Below, one piece after another: positions 1 to 5,529 of a stretch of DNA of 5,529 nt. Position 1 is the stretch's first letter; every line of letters begins with the position of its first letter. Both the position numbers and the translations under genes were made by a program. The stretch comes from Xanthobacteraceae bacterium (lineage in GTDB: Bacteria > Pseudomonadota > Alphaproteobacteria > Rhizobiales > Xanthobacteraceae). The DNA is taken from the NCBI GenBank assembly GCA_030043175.1, contig JASHYD010000313.1:1-5529 (forward strand), read 5' to 3'. Below the pieces are notes generated by a model. That model was not told the DNA's origin. It did no database searches and saw only the letters and a program-made list of their open reading frames with translations.

Positions 1-112
1 CCATCCGCTTGGTGTCCGCACCGCGGAGAATGCCTCCGCCGTAACAGCCCAGTTCGCCCATGCCCAGATTATCGACATGGAAGAAGAGAATGTTTGGCTT
101 CTTGGGCGACAA
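1..112 (-). CDS. Arylsulfatase-like sulfatase, N-terminal 37 codons only (cut by window edge)
   Basis: The start of an alkaline-phosphatase-superfamily sulfatase, which would hydrolyse a sulfate ester to an alcohol or phenol plus sulfate. The first residues after the start read SPKKPNILFFHVDNLGMGEL, followed by GCYGGG and LRGADTKRM; this is the typical N-terminal strand and metal-site loop of the family (PNILxxxxDDxGxGxLGCYGG). Asp14 fits the first metal ligand, while the usual second Asp is Asn15. The diagnostic C/S-x-P-x-R formylglycine motif would lie beyond the window. The start is TTG at 110-112, chosen because AAAGGAGG sits 5 bases upstream and no ATG or GTG is in frame. There is no signal peptide, so the enzyme is probably cytoplasmic and would act on imported substrate. 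It is the fourth gene after an importer operon, as in Pseudomonas ats clusters. Family assignment is strong; the exact substrate is unknown. Confidence 0.85.
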   Translation of the reverse strand, partial: MSPKKPNILFFHVDNLGMGELGCYGGGILRGADTKRM

Positions 113-188: not shown

Positions 189-1042
<854 letters not shown>

Positions 1043-1046
<4 letters not shown>

Positions 1047-2002
1047 TTCTTGCTCCCAACCGAATAGGCGAGCCACGGCATCGCCAAAGTGCCAACCGCG
1101 CGGATCGCACCGCTGCACAAAAGTCCAAGGATACCGATCGTGATCATCCCGAGAACGATTGCGGGATAGTTGACCAGTGAGTAGGCTTCCCACGTGAAGT
1201 AACCGACGCCGAACTGGCCCGAGATCATCTCCGCGGCGATGAGCGAGACCCAGGCCACGCCCATGCCGACCGCCAGCCCGGTGAAGATGTTTCCGAGCGA
1301 TCCCGGCAAGATCACGTGCCAGAACAGCTGCAGTTCGTTCGCCCCGAGACACCGGCCGGCGCGGATCAACACGCCATCCATGGAATTCACGCCATGGACC
1401 GTATTGAGCAGGATCGGGAAGAATGCGCCGATGAACGTGATGTAGACGATGCTCGACTCGTTATCCGGCCACAGCATGATCGACATCGGCACCCACGCGA
1501 TCGCCGGAATCGGACGCAACACTTCGATCGCCGGCATGAACAGATCGCGCATCAGCCGGTACTTCCCGATCGTAAGGCCGAGCGGCACGCCAACCAGGAT
1601 GGCGATGAAGAAGCCGGAAAAAATACGCCGCAGGCTCATGACGATGTTGGTCAGGAACTTGTTCGACCCCGCCACTTCCGCCGCCTGCTCGAACACCTCG
1701 TAAGGCGTCGGCACGTTCTTGAACCTGATGAAGAATTCCAGCCGATATTTTGTGCCGACATACCAGAACAGGAACAGCGCACTGAGCGAAACAAGACCGA
1801 GCACGAGGCTCAGCATGCGGTCTTTCGCAAACCAAGCCAGCATGTGCTTTGCGGTCGGCGCGGACGTAGGACTGGGGGGCGGCGACGAGGTCGGGGGAGA
1901 TGCCCGGGACGTGACCGGTGGCCGCGCCGGAGAGTCGTCGGGAGTTTCCGCGGGCGGATGATCCGCTCGGACCATATTCAATTTGACGATGTTGGCTCTC
2001 AT
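1043..2002 (-). CDS. ABC importer permease, SsuC/TauC/NrtB (BPD_transp_1) type
   Basis: A 319-residue inner-membrane subunit forming the translocation path. After a cytosolic N-terminal segment very rich in Pro, Ser and Thr (about 15-49), hydrophobic segments lie near 63-83, 127-147, 160-178, 183-203, 239-258 and 280-300, giving about six spans. The ATPase-docking EAA loop is at about 213-234 (IRAGRCLGANELQLFWHVIL), with Arg in place of the usual first Glu but the conserved Gly and the LPG ending kept. The start at 2002 was chosen because TAAGGTG lies 7 bases upstream and because translation further upstream would only read the binding-protein gene out of frame. The gap to the binding-protein stop is 17 bases, and its TGA overlaps the ATPase ATG. 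It is therefore the middle gene of one operon and equivalent in position to AtsB. Confidence 0.93.
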
Positions 2003-2019: not shown

Positions 2020-3471
2020 TCAATGGTTGACGGTGAGGCTGTTCAGCGCCTCGGCGTATGTTGCGAGTTTGCCGCCGGTCTTGTCTGCGTAGGCTTGGGC
2101 GTCGCGCTTCAGCAGAAACGGCACCACTTCGGACTTTCCTGACGCCTGACCGGCGACCGCATAGAAGGCCGCATCCGCAAACACCTTGATGCCGAGTTCG
2201 TGATCGACGACATAGACGGCGTTGAGCTTCCTGCCTGCGGAGGTGAACTTCTTGACGCCGGCGAGAGTGCAGGCCGGTGAACTGAACGAGAGAATGTCGC
2301 CGTCCTTGACCCAAATCTGCCCGGCATCTTTCGGCTGCGTGACCGGCACGTTGCAGACAGGATCGTCGCCTTTGACCTCGTATCCAGACATTTCCTTAAG
2401 CTGGGCGTCGTAATCGAGGCTCCGATCTTTGTGAGCTTGGCGAACGTATTTATCGTTGACCCAGGCCTCGATCTTGAGCGGCTTGATCAAATTGAGCTTC
2501 TGCAGCACCGCATAGTCGCCCTTCATGGCCTCGATCCAAGCGGGCTTGATGGTCGGATCGAGCACGTGTACGCCGCCCGGGCCAAGAAAGATGTAAGCCA
2601 CCTCTTTATTGATCTTGGTCCACTCCTCAATCTTTTCGGACGCCAGCTTGGGGTTCTTGCGGTACCAATCGTTGGCTTCCATCAAGGCTTCGATATAGGC
2701 CGTCACGATTTCGGGATATTTTTCGCCGAAATCCTTGCGTACGACCACGCCGTGGAACGTCGGGGTTTTGGTTTCCGCCCCATCATATATTTTTCGTGCA
2801 AACCCGCGGAACGGGAGCAGCTCGGCAAACGGGACGAAGTCGCCGTGGGCATCGATCCGCTTCTCCTGCAAATTGGTGCTTCCGATCTCCGGCGATTGCG
2901 ACACCAGATTCCAGAAGCCGTTCGGCAGGCCGCGCATTTGCAGCGACTGCAACATCATGCCGTGGGCGGCGGAACCGAACGGCACGGACACGTTCTTGCC
3001 CTTGAGATCCGCGAGCTCGTAGTAGGGCGAGTCCTTGTGCACCACGATGCCATTGCCGCCGCCATAAGCGTTGTATGCGATGATGGCGACGAGTTGCGTC
3101 TCGTTTCCGGTCGCCTGTCCTGTCGCGCCGTTCACCAGCAGCGGATAATCTCCCATCATTCCGATCTGGATATTGTTGGCCATCATTCCATTGGTTATCG
3201 GCGGACCGGACGTGAAGTTCTGCCAGGACAGGGTATATTTCATGTCCTTGTATTTCCCGGTTTTCGGGAGGTGTTTCTCGAACAGGCCAAGTTCCTTGAG
3301 AACGATGCCGCCGGTAACGGTGTTGGTTGTGGTATTTTGCGTTCCGATCCCGATATCGAGCCTGGTTTGCGCGCTTGCAGTGCCGAGCGTGCTGGCAACG
3401 GCCGCAGCAATCAGAAACGGCAGCACCGGGGTTTTCGACACGAAATTGGTCTGGGGGTGGCCGACACTCAT
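2020..3471 (-). CDS. ABC substrate-binding protein (NMT1/SsuA-like) fused to a C-terminal NosL-like domain
   Basis: A 483-residue periplasmic protein that captures the substrate for the permease and ATPase encoded after it. A Sec signal peptide is clear: Lys13, hydrophobic core about 15-30, and a TASA|Q cleavage site after Ala34. Residues 35 to about 340 resemble nitrate/sulfonate/taurine binding proteins (LDIGIGTQ strand, IVLKELGLFEK, NGMMANNIQIGMMGDYP, DLKGKNVSVPFGSAAHGMML, YPEIVTAYIEALMEANDWY). Family members are usually about 320-350 residues. The extra C-terminus (about 371-476) resembles NosL: DPVCNVPV, AGQIWVKDGDILSFSSPAC, AVYVVDHELGIKVFADAAFYAVAGQ, EVVPFLLKRDAQAYADKTGGK. The NosL CGM motif is here Cys373-Asn-Val, and a second Cys is at 401. 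The ATG at 3471 is preceded by AGAAGG with 9 bases between and gives a sensible signal peptide. The open frame continues upstream to 3672, but that would run through the sigma-54 promoter. Position matches AtsR. Confidence 0.93.
   Translation of the reverse strand: MSVGHPQTNFVSKTPVLPFLIAAAVASTLGTASAQTRLDIGIGTQNTTTNTVTGGIVLKELGLFEKHLPKTGKYKDMKYTLSWQNFTSGPPITNGMMANNIQIGMMGDYPLLVNGATGQATGNETQLVAIIAYNAYGGGNGIVVHKDSPYYELADLKGKNVSVPFGSAAHGMMLQSLQMRGLPNGFWNLVSQSPEIGSTNLQEKRIDAHGDFVPFAELLPFRGFARKIYDGAETKTPTFHGVVVRKDFGEKYPEIVTAYIEALMEANDWYRKNPKLASEKIEEWTKINKEVAYIFLGPGGVHVLDPTIKPAWIEAMKGDYAVLQKLNLIKPLKIEAWVNDKYVRQAHKDRSLDYDAQLKEMSGYEVKGDDPVCNVPVTQPKDAGQIWVKDGDILSFSSPACTLAGVKKFTSAGRKLNAVYVVDHELGIKVFADAAFYAVAGQASGKSEVVPFLLKRDAQAYADKTGGKLATYAEALNSLTVNH
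2023..2361 (-). other. NosL-like domain within the substrate-binding protein
   Basis: This part of the binding-protein gene encodes residues 371-483. NosL proteins typically run: CPVCGM near the start, a VxxxDG strand then a short helix, an A(I/V)YVTDY strand, a DAxxAxFVxGSxVxGPMG segment, and a VPFxxxxDAxxFxxxxGGxxL tail. The same blocks occur here in the same order and spacing: DPVCNV (371-375), IWVKDG (386-391), AVYVVDH (418-424), FADAAFYAVAGQASG (431-445) and VPFLLKRDAQAYADKTGGKL (450-469). The Met of the CGM motif is Val and the GPMG element is absent, so copper binding as in NosL is uncertain. Comparison is from memory of the family, not from an alignment. Confidence 0.75.
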
Positions 3472-3832: not shown

Positions 3833-3844
3833 GCAACTAGTTGC
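3833..3844. promoter_or_regulatory. 12-base perfect palindrome GCAACTAGTTGC
   Basis: A perfect palindrome with no spacer, in an AT-richer stretch between the regulator stop and the sigma-54 promoter, about 260 bases upstream of the predicted start site. It could be a dimeric regulator operator or a distal activator site. It does not match the TTGAT-N4-ATCAA form of the Fnr/FixK box, so linking it to the neighbouring Crp/Fnr protein is unsupported. Confidence 0.4.
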
Positions 3845-3933: not shown

Positions 3934-4638
3934 TTAATCGCCCGTATCCCGTCCGTCCTGAATCTCCCGGAGCCTGTCGGGAGCCGCGATGATGATATTG
4001 GCCCCCTGCACTTGGACGATGCCGCGCTCGGCGAACCGTTTAAGGCTCGTCGTAATCCATTGGCGGGTGACGCCGGTCATATGCGCCAAGTCGGCGTGGG
4101 TGAACGAGGCGGCAATCAAGACGCCGCCGTCCACTTCGATGCCGTAGAGACTGATGAGATGCAGCAGCAGATGCGCGAGCCGTTCGGTGGCCGACCGCGT
4201 GCCCAGCATCTGCGCCATCGCGGAATAGCATTTGCCCTTGAAAATCAGACCTTCGATGATGCCGATAGCAAGCCTGGGGACCGTGGTCACCATGGATTTC
4301 AGGACGTCGCCGGGCAGATGGAGGACGGTACTGTTGGTGGCAGCTGATCCTGACCAGACATGAACGCCGCGCCTGAACACCTCAGGCCCGCCAACGAAGT
4401 TACCCTGGTGCCAATAAGCAAGGGTGATCTCGCGGCCGGAGGGCGCGGTGTAAAAGACCTTTATGCGCCCGGTTTCGATGAGGTAGATGCCGTCCTGCGG
4501 CGTGCCCTGGCTGAAGAGCCTGGCTCCGCGATACAGCACCTTGCGCTTTCCAGCTTCGACGATCTGCTTGATCTCACTGTCGTTCAGGCCGTGAAGCAAT
4601 TGTGGAGGGCCCGCCTGCTGCCCTCCCGCGTTGGTCAT
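3934..4638 (-). CDS. Crp/Fnr-family transcriptional regulator
   Basis: A 234-residue cytoplasmic DNA-binding protein. Residues about 15-110 form the cyclic-nucleotide-binding-like beta barrel (LYRGARLFSQGTPQDGIYLI, GRIKVFYTAPSGREITLAYW, GNFVGGPEVF). A long dimerisation helix lies near 111-140. A Crp-type winged helix-turn-helix covers about 150-215 (SFTHADLAHMTGVTRQWITT, then SLKRFAERGIV), with TRQWITTSLKRF as recognition helix. The four-Cys iron-sulfur signature of Fnr is absent, as the only cysteine visible is at 137, so oxygen sensing through a cluster is unlikely; the effector is unknown. Two starts are possible. The ATG at 4638 gives normal family length but a weak ribosome site. The ATG at 4722 has GGTGGAG 6 bases upstream, but the added 28 codons have poorly GC-biased third positions, unlike the rest. 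The gene is upstream of and co-oriented with the importer operon, 462 bases away, so it may regulate it. Confidence 0.88.
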   Translation of the reverse strand: MTNAGGQQAGPPQLLHGLNDSEIKQIVEAGKRKVLYRGARLFSQGTPQDGIYLIETGRIKVFYTAPSGREITLAYWHQGNFVGGPEVFRRGVHVWSGSAATNSTVLHLPGDVLKSMVTTVPRLAIGIIEGLIFKGKCYSAMAQMLGTRSATERLAHLLLHLISLYGIEVDGGVLIAASFTHADLAHMTGVTRQWITTSLKRFAERGIVQVQGANIIIAAPDRLREIQDGRDTGD

Positions 4639-4728
4639 CGGAACGCCGCCGAATCGCTCTCGTCCTGTTGAACTCTGACCCACCAATGAGATCCAGGGAG
4701 GTGGTGGCTTCTGCGCACCCATCGGGGT

Positions 4729-4735
4729 CTCCACC
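4729..4735 (-). promoter_or_regulatory. Possible Shine-Dalgarno for a longer Crp/Fnr start at 4722
   Basis: The minus strand reads GGTGGAG, 6 bases before an in-frame ATG at 4722-4720. It is a better ribosome site than anything before the ATG at 4638 and would add 28 residues (MGAQKPPPPW and onward) before the usual N-terminus. Codon composition of the added part argues against it, so the true start is undecided. Confidence 0.35.
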
Positions 4736-4887
4736 CTAGGGAAACATGCGTGAGCATACGCTAACTTCGGACGAGGGGAAGCCAATGCCACATCAAATCG
4801 GCCGTTGTGCCGGACGTACGCACGAATTCGCGGAGGCGCAGCTGACTTGAAAGGCCGCGGCGTGAACGAGAGTTCGGTTGATTTAAG

Positions 4888-5292
4888 TTGGGTGAGAGGC
4901 CGACTTTGCCGCCGTGGGACCTGGGGACCGTCGCCGCGCGGATTCAGCAAAAAACGCCGCCCGGCCAAGGTGGGTGGCATATGACTGTTCTTCGCTCTTA
5001 TGGCGTCGAGAATGCCGACCCGACCAGCAGCTTTCTACGCGCCGCCGGCAATTATCATGGGAATGGTTGGGCGAATAATCCGCAAATCGAAGCCGAGATC
5101 GCGGCGTGGTAATGACGCAACGAACTCGGACGAGGAGAAGACGATTGTACGCCGGCTCAACAGGCTGGCCATCGACCATGTCCTCTTCGCACCGCTAGGA
5201 GTGACCCTGCAGCATCAAGCCTGGCGCAAGGAGTCAGCGGCATAGGGCAAGCGCCGCTGCCCCTTTTCTGGGGCGGGAGCAAGACGGCGTGA
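4888..5292 (+). pseudogene. Decayed C-terminal fragment of a family-5 (peptide/nickel-type) ABC substrate-binding protein
   Basis: Three consecutive reading-frame segments join into one C-terminus of a DppA/OppA-like periplasmic binding protein. Segment one runs from about 4915 (WDLGTVAARIQQKTPPGQGG, then WHM through ADPTSSFLRAAG to NNPQIEAEIAAW) to a TAA at 5110-5112. Shifting by one base restores the expected WFDAT continuation: DATNSDEEKTIVRRLNRLAI, then DHVLFAPLGVTLQHQAWRK, up to about 5232. Here a one-base loss gives a premature TAG at 5243-5245; correcting it recovers the natural end VSGIGQAPLPLFWGGSKTA with TGA at 5290-5292. Family members are about 500-540 residues, so only the last quarter remains. 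A stop at 4879-4881 and no homologous sequence upstream show that the 5' part is lost. No permease or ATPase of such a system is nearby. It is an inactive relic, not related to the minus-strand importer. Confidence 0.8.
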
Positions 5293-5484
5293 TCTTCGAT
5301 GACCTGCGCTTCAAATTCGCGAAGGAGATTGCCTAGCTGATTCAAGAGTTTCTCTCAGCGGGTGTGCCCCGCGGGAGTCCGTTGGTAGCCCGAATCCGGA
5401 GTGGCGGCCCTCCGTCTTGGCAATCCGCAGTTGACGTAACTTCGGACGTGCCAGTCACGGAGTCTGATTGGTCGCCCATGACCC

Positions 5485-5500
5485 GCCGCAGACCTGCGGC
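5485..5500. repeat. Inverted repeat GCCGCAG-AC-CTGCGGC
   Basis: Perfect 7-bp arms with a 2-base centre, in the gene-poor right end (5293-5529). It could fold as a small hairpin or be a protein-binding palindrome. No run of T follows on the plus strand, so it is not a standard terminator. In GC-rich DNA such repeats arise fairly often. Nothing else supportable was seen in 5293-5529; short open stretches there have no recognisable protein features. Confidence 0.35.
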
Positions 5501-5529
5501 TGGTCCGCGCTCAACAGCCCATGTTTTCC

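What the first reader, a model, noticed from the sequence alone, without database searches (positions are those of the whole stretch)
2020..3471. Substrate-binding protein fused to a NosL-like domain
The periplasmic binding protein is about 110-140 residues longer than SsuA/TauA/NrtA-type relatives, and the extra C-terminus follows the NosL block order (PVC-N-V, IWVKDG, AVYVVDH, DAAFYAVAG, VPFxxxxDAxxYADKTGGK). NosL proteins are copper-binding lipoproteins linked to nitrous oxide reductase maturation; here one is tethered to an organosulfur-type importer with no denitrification gene in the window. It could sense or bind a metal, bind a metal-complexed substrate, or be a repurposed scaffold.
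Basis: partly seen in the sequence, partly recalled or inferred. Interest (0 to 1): 0.75.

Follow-up and report, generated by a model that had tools for sequence, protein, structure and literature searches.

The report
Sulfur-compound binding protein with NosL tail
A bacterial protein that probably captures sulfur-containing organic molecules for import carries, fused to its end, a domain related to a copper chaperone; the fusion is real, old and widespread, but the known copper site is mostly not preserved, so the tail is probably a reused scaffold whose job is still unknown.

Summary
Minus-strand ORF 2020-3471 (483 aa) is an SsuA/TauA-type substrate-binding protein (SBP) with a C-terminal NosL-like domain (Pfam PF05573, residues 377-474, 27.7 bits, cut-off 24). 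A NosL profile scores 342 of 460 family members at E<1e-3 and 0 of 460 copies with shuffled tails. A predicted structure matches the NosL crystal structure 7og7.

All 460 members gathered keep the tail. The sulfatase link is only part of the picture. Of 80 genome loci, 30 have a sulfatase (29 also a formylglycine-generating enzyme) and 49 an AprA-like flavoprotein; one has both. Sulfatase neighbours look like a derived partner swap, about three times on the tree.

The NosL copper site is mostly lost: 1 of 207 members with Cys373 has the Met of the CXM motif. The window's clade has two cysteines (373, 401), always as a pair; other lineages have neither (207 with both, 253 with neither, none with one).

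Best reading: the SBP of an aryl-sulfate/sulfonate importer with a repurposed NosL scaffold. Copper or redox chemistry in the two-Cys clade is possible but untested.

The parts
2020..3471 (-). Substrate-binding protein with C-terminal NosL-like domain (483 aa)
   Evidence: Pfam NMT1_2 35 bits and NosL 27.7 bits, both over cut-off; AlphaFold2 model mean pLDDT 91.3, pTM 0.89
2449..3369 (-). SsuA/TauA-type two-lobe binding domain (residues about 35-341)
2026..2370 (-). NosL-like domain (residues about 368-482), beta-beta-alpha-beta pattern twice
   Evidence: Pfam NosL; Foldseek to 7og7 E 5.4e-5; profile-profile E 3.9e-15 and shuffle control
2353..2355 (-). Codon of Cys373, aligned with the Cys of the NosL CXM motif
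   Evidence: 121 of 121 in the closest set; alignment to NosL
2269..2271 (-). Codon of Cys401, second Cys of the pair
   Evidence: 121 of 121 in the closest set; always found together with Cys373 among 460 members
1043..2002 (-). ABC permease, TauC/SaoP-like
   Evidence: Pfam BPD_transp_1 81.6 bits; NCBIfam SaoP and TauC models match below cut-off
189..1046 (-). ABC ATPase
   Evidence: Pfam ABC_tran 107 bits; start codon overlaps the permease stop
1..112 (-). First 37 codons of a sulfatase without an apparent signal peptide (TTG start)
   Evidence: Reads SPKKPNILFFHVDNLGMGELGCYGGG after the TTG, like the sulfatase in the same position in L011 (PF00884)
3934..4638 (-). Crp/FNR-family regulator upstream of the operon
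   Evidence: Pfam cNMP_binding and HTH_Crp_2 over cut-off; a like gene precedes the SBP in most Bradyrhizobium loci; start inferred

Best explanation
The protein is the periplasmic binding component of an ABC importer for organosulfur oxyanions: aryl sulfate esters here, and probably aryl sulfonates in the sister operons. The SBP lobes capture the substrate and hand it to the permease and ATPase. A cytoplasmic, FGE-activated sulfatase then releases sulfate. The C-terminal NosL-like domain is an old, constant and rigidly packed part of this SBP family. It descends from the NosL scaffold but has lost most of the copper-chaperone site, and most likely works as a structural or docking module on the SBP (for closing the lobes, contact with the permease, or recycling). 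In the clade that holds the window the domain gained or kept two cysteines that act together, as a disulfide or as a bis-thiolate metal site. Shown by computation: domain identity, distribution, contexts, loss of the CXM Met, pairing of the cysteines. Inferred: substrate class, cellular locations, docking role, chemistry of the cysteines.
Against: No substrate or binding test exists. The paired cysteines trace to one or two events, so their pairing is weak proof of joint function. Conservation of the two Cys (207 of 207 in the clade) while the rest of the tail drifts (56% mean pairwise identity against 74% in the lobes) argues that in this clade the tail has a specific chemical role and not only a scaffold role. 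The 460 members were found by full-length similarity, which favours tailed proteins. The identity of the AprA-like protein with AsfA rests on gene composition and recall; no sequence of AsfA was compared.
Confidence: 0.58

Rival explanations
1. Copper module: in the window's clade the tail binds Cu(I) through Cys373 and Cys401 and supports copper supply or copper-dependent gating of the importer; in sulfatase operons it would serve the copper-dependent FGE made from the same operon.
For: Cys373 aligns with the NosL copper-site Cys. The pair is invariant in its clade. FGE is a bis-thiolate Cu(I) enzyme (PMC12123546, abstract read) and 29 of 29 neighbouring FGEs keep C-X4-C (that these are the copper ligands is recalled). 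17 of 207 pair members have a Met in the region of the second NosL Met.
Against: The Cys pair seems older than the sulfatase/FGE partner: it is also present in the AprA-type operons, where 48 of 49 named loci showed no FGE. The CXM Met is kept in 1 of 207 and a second Met in 17 of 207. Apart from FGE no copper gene was among the 20 recurrent neighbour groups typed. The tail should be periplasmic while FGE and sulfatase should be cytoplasmic. The other lineages sampled lack both Cys.
Confidence: 0.14
2. Redox or disulfide module: Cys373-Cys401 form a structural disulfide or a reversible redox switch in the oxidising periplasm that stabilises the tail or gates the SBP.
For: The only two conserved cysteines in the mature protein of this clade, always together, in an apparently exported protein.
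Against: The NosL-like fold does not need it: 253 of 460 members lack both.
Confidence: 0.22
3. The tail is an inert relic or a domain-call artefact without function.
For: Pfam is weak: 51 of 61 relatives scanned reach E 0.01 for NosL, and a separate NosL HMM leaves 118 of 460 above E 1e-3.
Against: Tail kept in 460 of 460 members from Pseudomonadota and cyanobacteria, with Trp387, Tyr354 and Ala458 in 460 of 460; shuffle control 0 of 460; structural match to NosL.
Confidence: 0.06

Closest known systems
SsuA / TauA substrate-binding proteins
   Different: SsuA_fam score 119 is under the cut-off of 163.5; His209 and His240, in 460 of 460 members, are not His in any of five tail-less relatives; those five carry no tail
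NosL copper chaperone
   Same: Domain homology and fold; Cys373 lines up with the CXM Cys
   Different: CXM Met kept in 1 of 207 and a second Met in 17 of 207 pair members; no lipobox Cys in the window protein; no nos genes recognised nearby; fused to an SBP
asf cluster of Pseudomonas putida S-313 (arylsulfonate desulfonation)
   Same: Composition given in PMC4267179 (passages): SBP, ABC transporter, reductase/ferredoxin; order flavoprotein-ferredoxin-SBP-permease-ATPase in 6 of 9 Cys-less loci, Pseudomonas-like by their proteins, and in Cupriavidus
   Different: The window has a sulfatase instead of the flavoprotein; regulators seen are Crp/FNR or GntR, not LysR (LysR-type only beside the two cyanobacterial copies); the AsfC sequence itself was not compared
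atsRBC arylsulfatase transporter (Pseudomonas, recalled)
   Same: SBP-permease-ATPase linked to an arylsulfatase gene
   Different: Whether AtsR has a NosL tail was not tested; the sulfatase in L011 is closer to 7aj0 (E 2.9e-60) than to arylsulfatase 1hdh (6.3e-20; Pseudomonas origin recalled)
YcnK of Bacillus subtilis (NosL domain recalled)
   Same: A NosL-type domain fused to a different functional module; the B. subtilis control genome has a NosL match
   Different: A copper-monitoring regulator (PMC12154828, passages); not a transporter part

Membership tests
NosL (PF05573) | Profile score over the curated cut-off | tested here: met
   27.7 bits against 24 for the window; 51 of 61 relatives at E 0.01
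NosL (PF05573) | NosL fold | tested here: met
   7og7: Foldseek E 5.4e-5, target TM 0.63, from a first model of mean pLDDT 61.9 whose tail is higher, about 66-91 per block of ten. In the rows shown for the better model SBP chains fill the list, so NosL neither appears nor is excluded
NosL copper chaperone | CXM motif with conserved Cys and Met | tested here: not met
   Window reads C-N-V; Met at 375 in 1 of 207 pair members; motif definition from PMC6530538 passages
NosL copper chaperone | Lipoprotein anchor Cys | tested here: not met
   Window protein has only Cys373 and Cys401; a cyanobacterial member, P0174, has a lipobox-like Cys
NosL copper chaperone | Linked to nos genes | tested here: not met
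   No nos gene recognised in the window or among the 20 neighbour groups typed; 8 of 25 host genomes carry a separate strong NosL elsewhere
NosL copper chaperone | Binds Cu(I) | not testable with these tools
   Needs biochemistry
SsuA/TauA substrate-binding protein | Two-lobe SBP fold of the family | tested here: met
SsuA/TauA substrate-binding protein | NCBIfam SsuA or TauA model over cut-off | tested here: not met
   119 against 163.5; 82.8 against 304.25
AsfC (asf cluster) | Sequence match to AsfC of P. putida S-313 | not tested
   No sequence at hand; linked only by gene composition
Sulfate-ester uptake operon | Sulfatase with FGE next to the transporter | tested here: inconclusive
   Sulfatase start is in the window; the window ends before any FGE could be seen, which is present in 29 of the 30 sulfatase loci

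The most novel reading that the evidence does not exclude
In the window's clade the NosL-derived tail is a new bis-cysteine Cu(I) site on an organosulfur SBP, so that sulfur scavenging and copper status are coupled, in sulfatase operons with the copper-dependent formylglycine-generating enzyme as the beneficiary.
Probability: 0.12. Interest if true: 0.8.

Novelty: new variant of a known kind. Interest (0 to 1): 0.48.

Why it matters
A whole SBP family, full-length in 15 of 299 sampled Pseudomonadota genomes (one of them the centre genome, chosen because it has the gene) and also in cyanobacteria, has a constant NosL-type domain that the paper searches made here did not turn up as described. 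It shows NosL used outside denitrification, marks a transporter that swapped between two desulfurisation modules, and offers a natural contrast (two-Cys against Cys-less tails) with which a copper or redox role can be tested directly.

Tried and rejected
Sulfatase-specific role of the tail: rejected, since 49 of 80 loci have the AprA-like gene, 48 of them without a sulfatase.

Copper for FGE as the origin of the Cys pair: rejected as origin, because the pair seems older than the sulfatase partner; it remains possible as a later use. Against a clean split, one Cys-less AprA-type locus (L102) has an FGE-like match on the other strand (42% identity).

Denitrification link: rejected for lack of recognised nos neighbours. 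8 of 25 host genomes have a separate strong NosL (E<1e-40) and 17 do not.

Conserved operator: a perfect 12-bp palindrome at 3833-3844 was not found within 700 bases upstream of the SBP match in 80 relatives, as far as the contigs reach.

First structure job (36 close sequences) gave pLDDT 61.9; the second (111 sequences) gave 91.3. No inter-residue distances could be read.

Naming the flavoprotein AsfA by annotation: plasmid records give no gene name; where annotated, 'fumarate reductase/succinate dehydrogenase flavoprotein subunit', once 'adenylyl-sulfate reductase subunit alpha' for a distant match. The name stays a recalled inference.

Literature: NosL with substrate-binding protein and arylsulfatase (0 papers), 'NosL domain' (0), NosL with copper and substrate-binding (8, listing only), NosL with sulfonate and ABC transporter (4, listing only, one of them also seen in passages). 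No listed title or abstract start describes the fusion; the full texts were not read. One protein record already bears the name 'tauA and NosL' (P0174), so the architecture has been annotated before.

Correction made on re-checking: an earlier count had suggested no Met at 375; the full tally shows one in 207.

Full report
What is there. The window's minus strand carries an operon-like run: SBP (2020-3471), permease (1043-2002), ATPase (189-1046) and the first 37 codons of a sulfatase (1-112), with a Crp/FNR-type regulator upstream (3934-4638). The SBP has 483 residues, an apparent Sec signal (my reading), and only two cysteines, 373 and 401.

Is the NosL call real? Pfam NosL matches residues 377-474 above its cut-off, 27.7 against 24 bits. 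An HMM made only from 25 stand-alone NosL domains finds the window at E 1.2e-5 and 342 of 460 family members at E<1e-3 (460 of 460 at E<10). Of 460 versions with shuffled tails none is found at E<1e-3 and 15 at E<10 (best 1.1); five tail-less SBPs gave no match (E-values for 1000 sequences). Profile-profile comparison of 43 tails with the 25 NosL gives probability 98.5 and E 3.9e-15. Weaker: Pfam at E 0.01 labels 51 of 61 relatives, NCBIfam shows no NosL match, and the solved NosL chains are met at E 0.19-1.7 only by sequence.

The family. A search found 3350 proteins at E<=1e-3 among 7994 scored; the 120 listed are 455-563 aa long and align over 91-100% of the query. The unlisted ones may include tail-less SBPs. 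In 299 sampled Pseudomonadota genomes, 19 had a match at E<=1e-20. 15 carry the full-length two-domain form (E 1.4e-126 or better), one of them being the centre genome G001, chosen because it has the gene. Four others, and a second copy in one of the 15, match at E 1e-21 to 1e-23 over the lobes only; these are SBPs of 317-338 aa without the tail. Nothing lay in between. Cyanobacterial members exist. Among 460 members gathered (window, 99 loci, 360 listed proteins from three searches) all have at least 70 of 101 tail columns filled. These are the nearest full-length hits of three queries, which favours tailed proteins, so frequencies in nature are not implied.

Context. 80 named genome loci were fetched, the best 80 of 368 confirmed. 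By tblastn with representative neighbours: 28 have sulfatase and FGE without the AprA-like gene, 48 the AprA-like gene without sulfatase, one has all three (L007), one sulfatase only (L015, short contig), two neither (L018, contig ends soon after the SBP; L021, contig begins shortly before it). The usual sulfatase type reads SBP-permease-ATPase-sulfatase-FGE-SulP. The other type reads GntR-AprA-like flavoprotein-AprB-like ferredoxin-HEAT-(FdxA)-SBP-permease-ATPase, then a ferredoxin reductase or a large oxidoreductase, and in part YeiH, ETF or TauE (families). All 30 sulfatases keep C-x-P-S/T-R and all 29 FGEs keep C-X4-C. FGE is a bis-thiolate Cu(I) enzyme (PMC12123546, abstract); that C-X4-C is this site is recalled.

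History. Trees were made from the SBP lobes only, tail columns left out. On 43 members plus 5 outgroup rows the Cys pair changes once and the context twice. On 100 members the Cys pair changes twice (one long, unstable branch, L101) and the context three times, against 18 at least and 26 on average in 50 shuffles of labels. These are quick trees with several weak branches. The window lies in a clade of 29 rows with support 100 (27 sulfatase only, L007 with both modules, L018 undetermined), nested among AprA-type members. So the sulfatase module looks like a derived partner, and the Cys pair older than it. The root is uncertain because outgroup branches are long.

The copper question. The NosL site as described in PMC6530538 (passages read) is a CXM motif plus another conserved Met. 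In this family Cys373 aligns with the CXM Cys, but position 375 is Met in 1 of 207 members with the pair, and a Met occurs in the region of the second NosL Met in 17 of 207. By eye, Cys401 has no counterpart in the stand-alone NosL printed; NosL of the CHVCGM kind have another Cys four residues earlier. 253 of 460 members lack both cysteines (one of them with a gap at 373); none has just one. Because this traces to one or two events, it is suggestive only.

Function. Shown: an importer gene set of the SsuA/TauA type joined to desulfurisation-type enzymes. The asf cluster described in PMC4267179 (passages) has the same kinds of genes as the AprA-type loci, and of the genera named there Variovorax, Polaromonas and Hydrogenophaga have AprA-type loci here, as does a Cupriavidus plasmid. 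That the AprA-like protein is AsfA is an inference; annotation in plasmid records gives no such gene name. Substrate: aryl sulfate esters in the window's operon type, inferred.

Verdict. A real and widespread fusion, already visible in automatic annotation (P0174 is named 'tauA and NosL') but not found described in the listings of the papers searched. Most likely a repurposed NosL scaffold on an organosulfur SBP, with an open question about the two-Cys clade.

Noticed in passing
window 3833-3844: Perfect palindrome GCAACTAGTTGC between the Crp/FNR gene and the SBP gene; not found upstream of the SBP in 80 relatives.
   Followed up: yes
window 1840-2002: The permease has a long Pro/Ser-rich N-terminal extension before its membrane part.
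   Followed up: no
L007: One Rhodocyclales locus holds both the sulfatase-FGE-SulP module and an AprA-like gene beside the same transporter, a possible intermediate of the partner swap.
   Followed up: partly
L115 and L116: Cyanobacterial plasmid copies have an Mrp/NBP35 ATPase and a LysR-substrate-domain protein of about 670 residues nearby; a DUF971 protein precedes the flavoprotein in Rhizobium and Methylobacterium (L117, L119).
   Followed up: no
L076 13284-16841: Large (1186 aa) oxidoreductase, partly glutamate-synthase-beta-like, occurs in 14 of 80 loci, 12 of them with the AprA-like gene, and none of these 14 shows the ferredoxin reductase.
   Followed up: no
window 4639-5529: About 0.9 kb upstream of the regulator in which I saw no convincing gene among the ORFs.
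   Followed up: no
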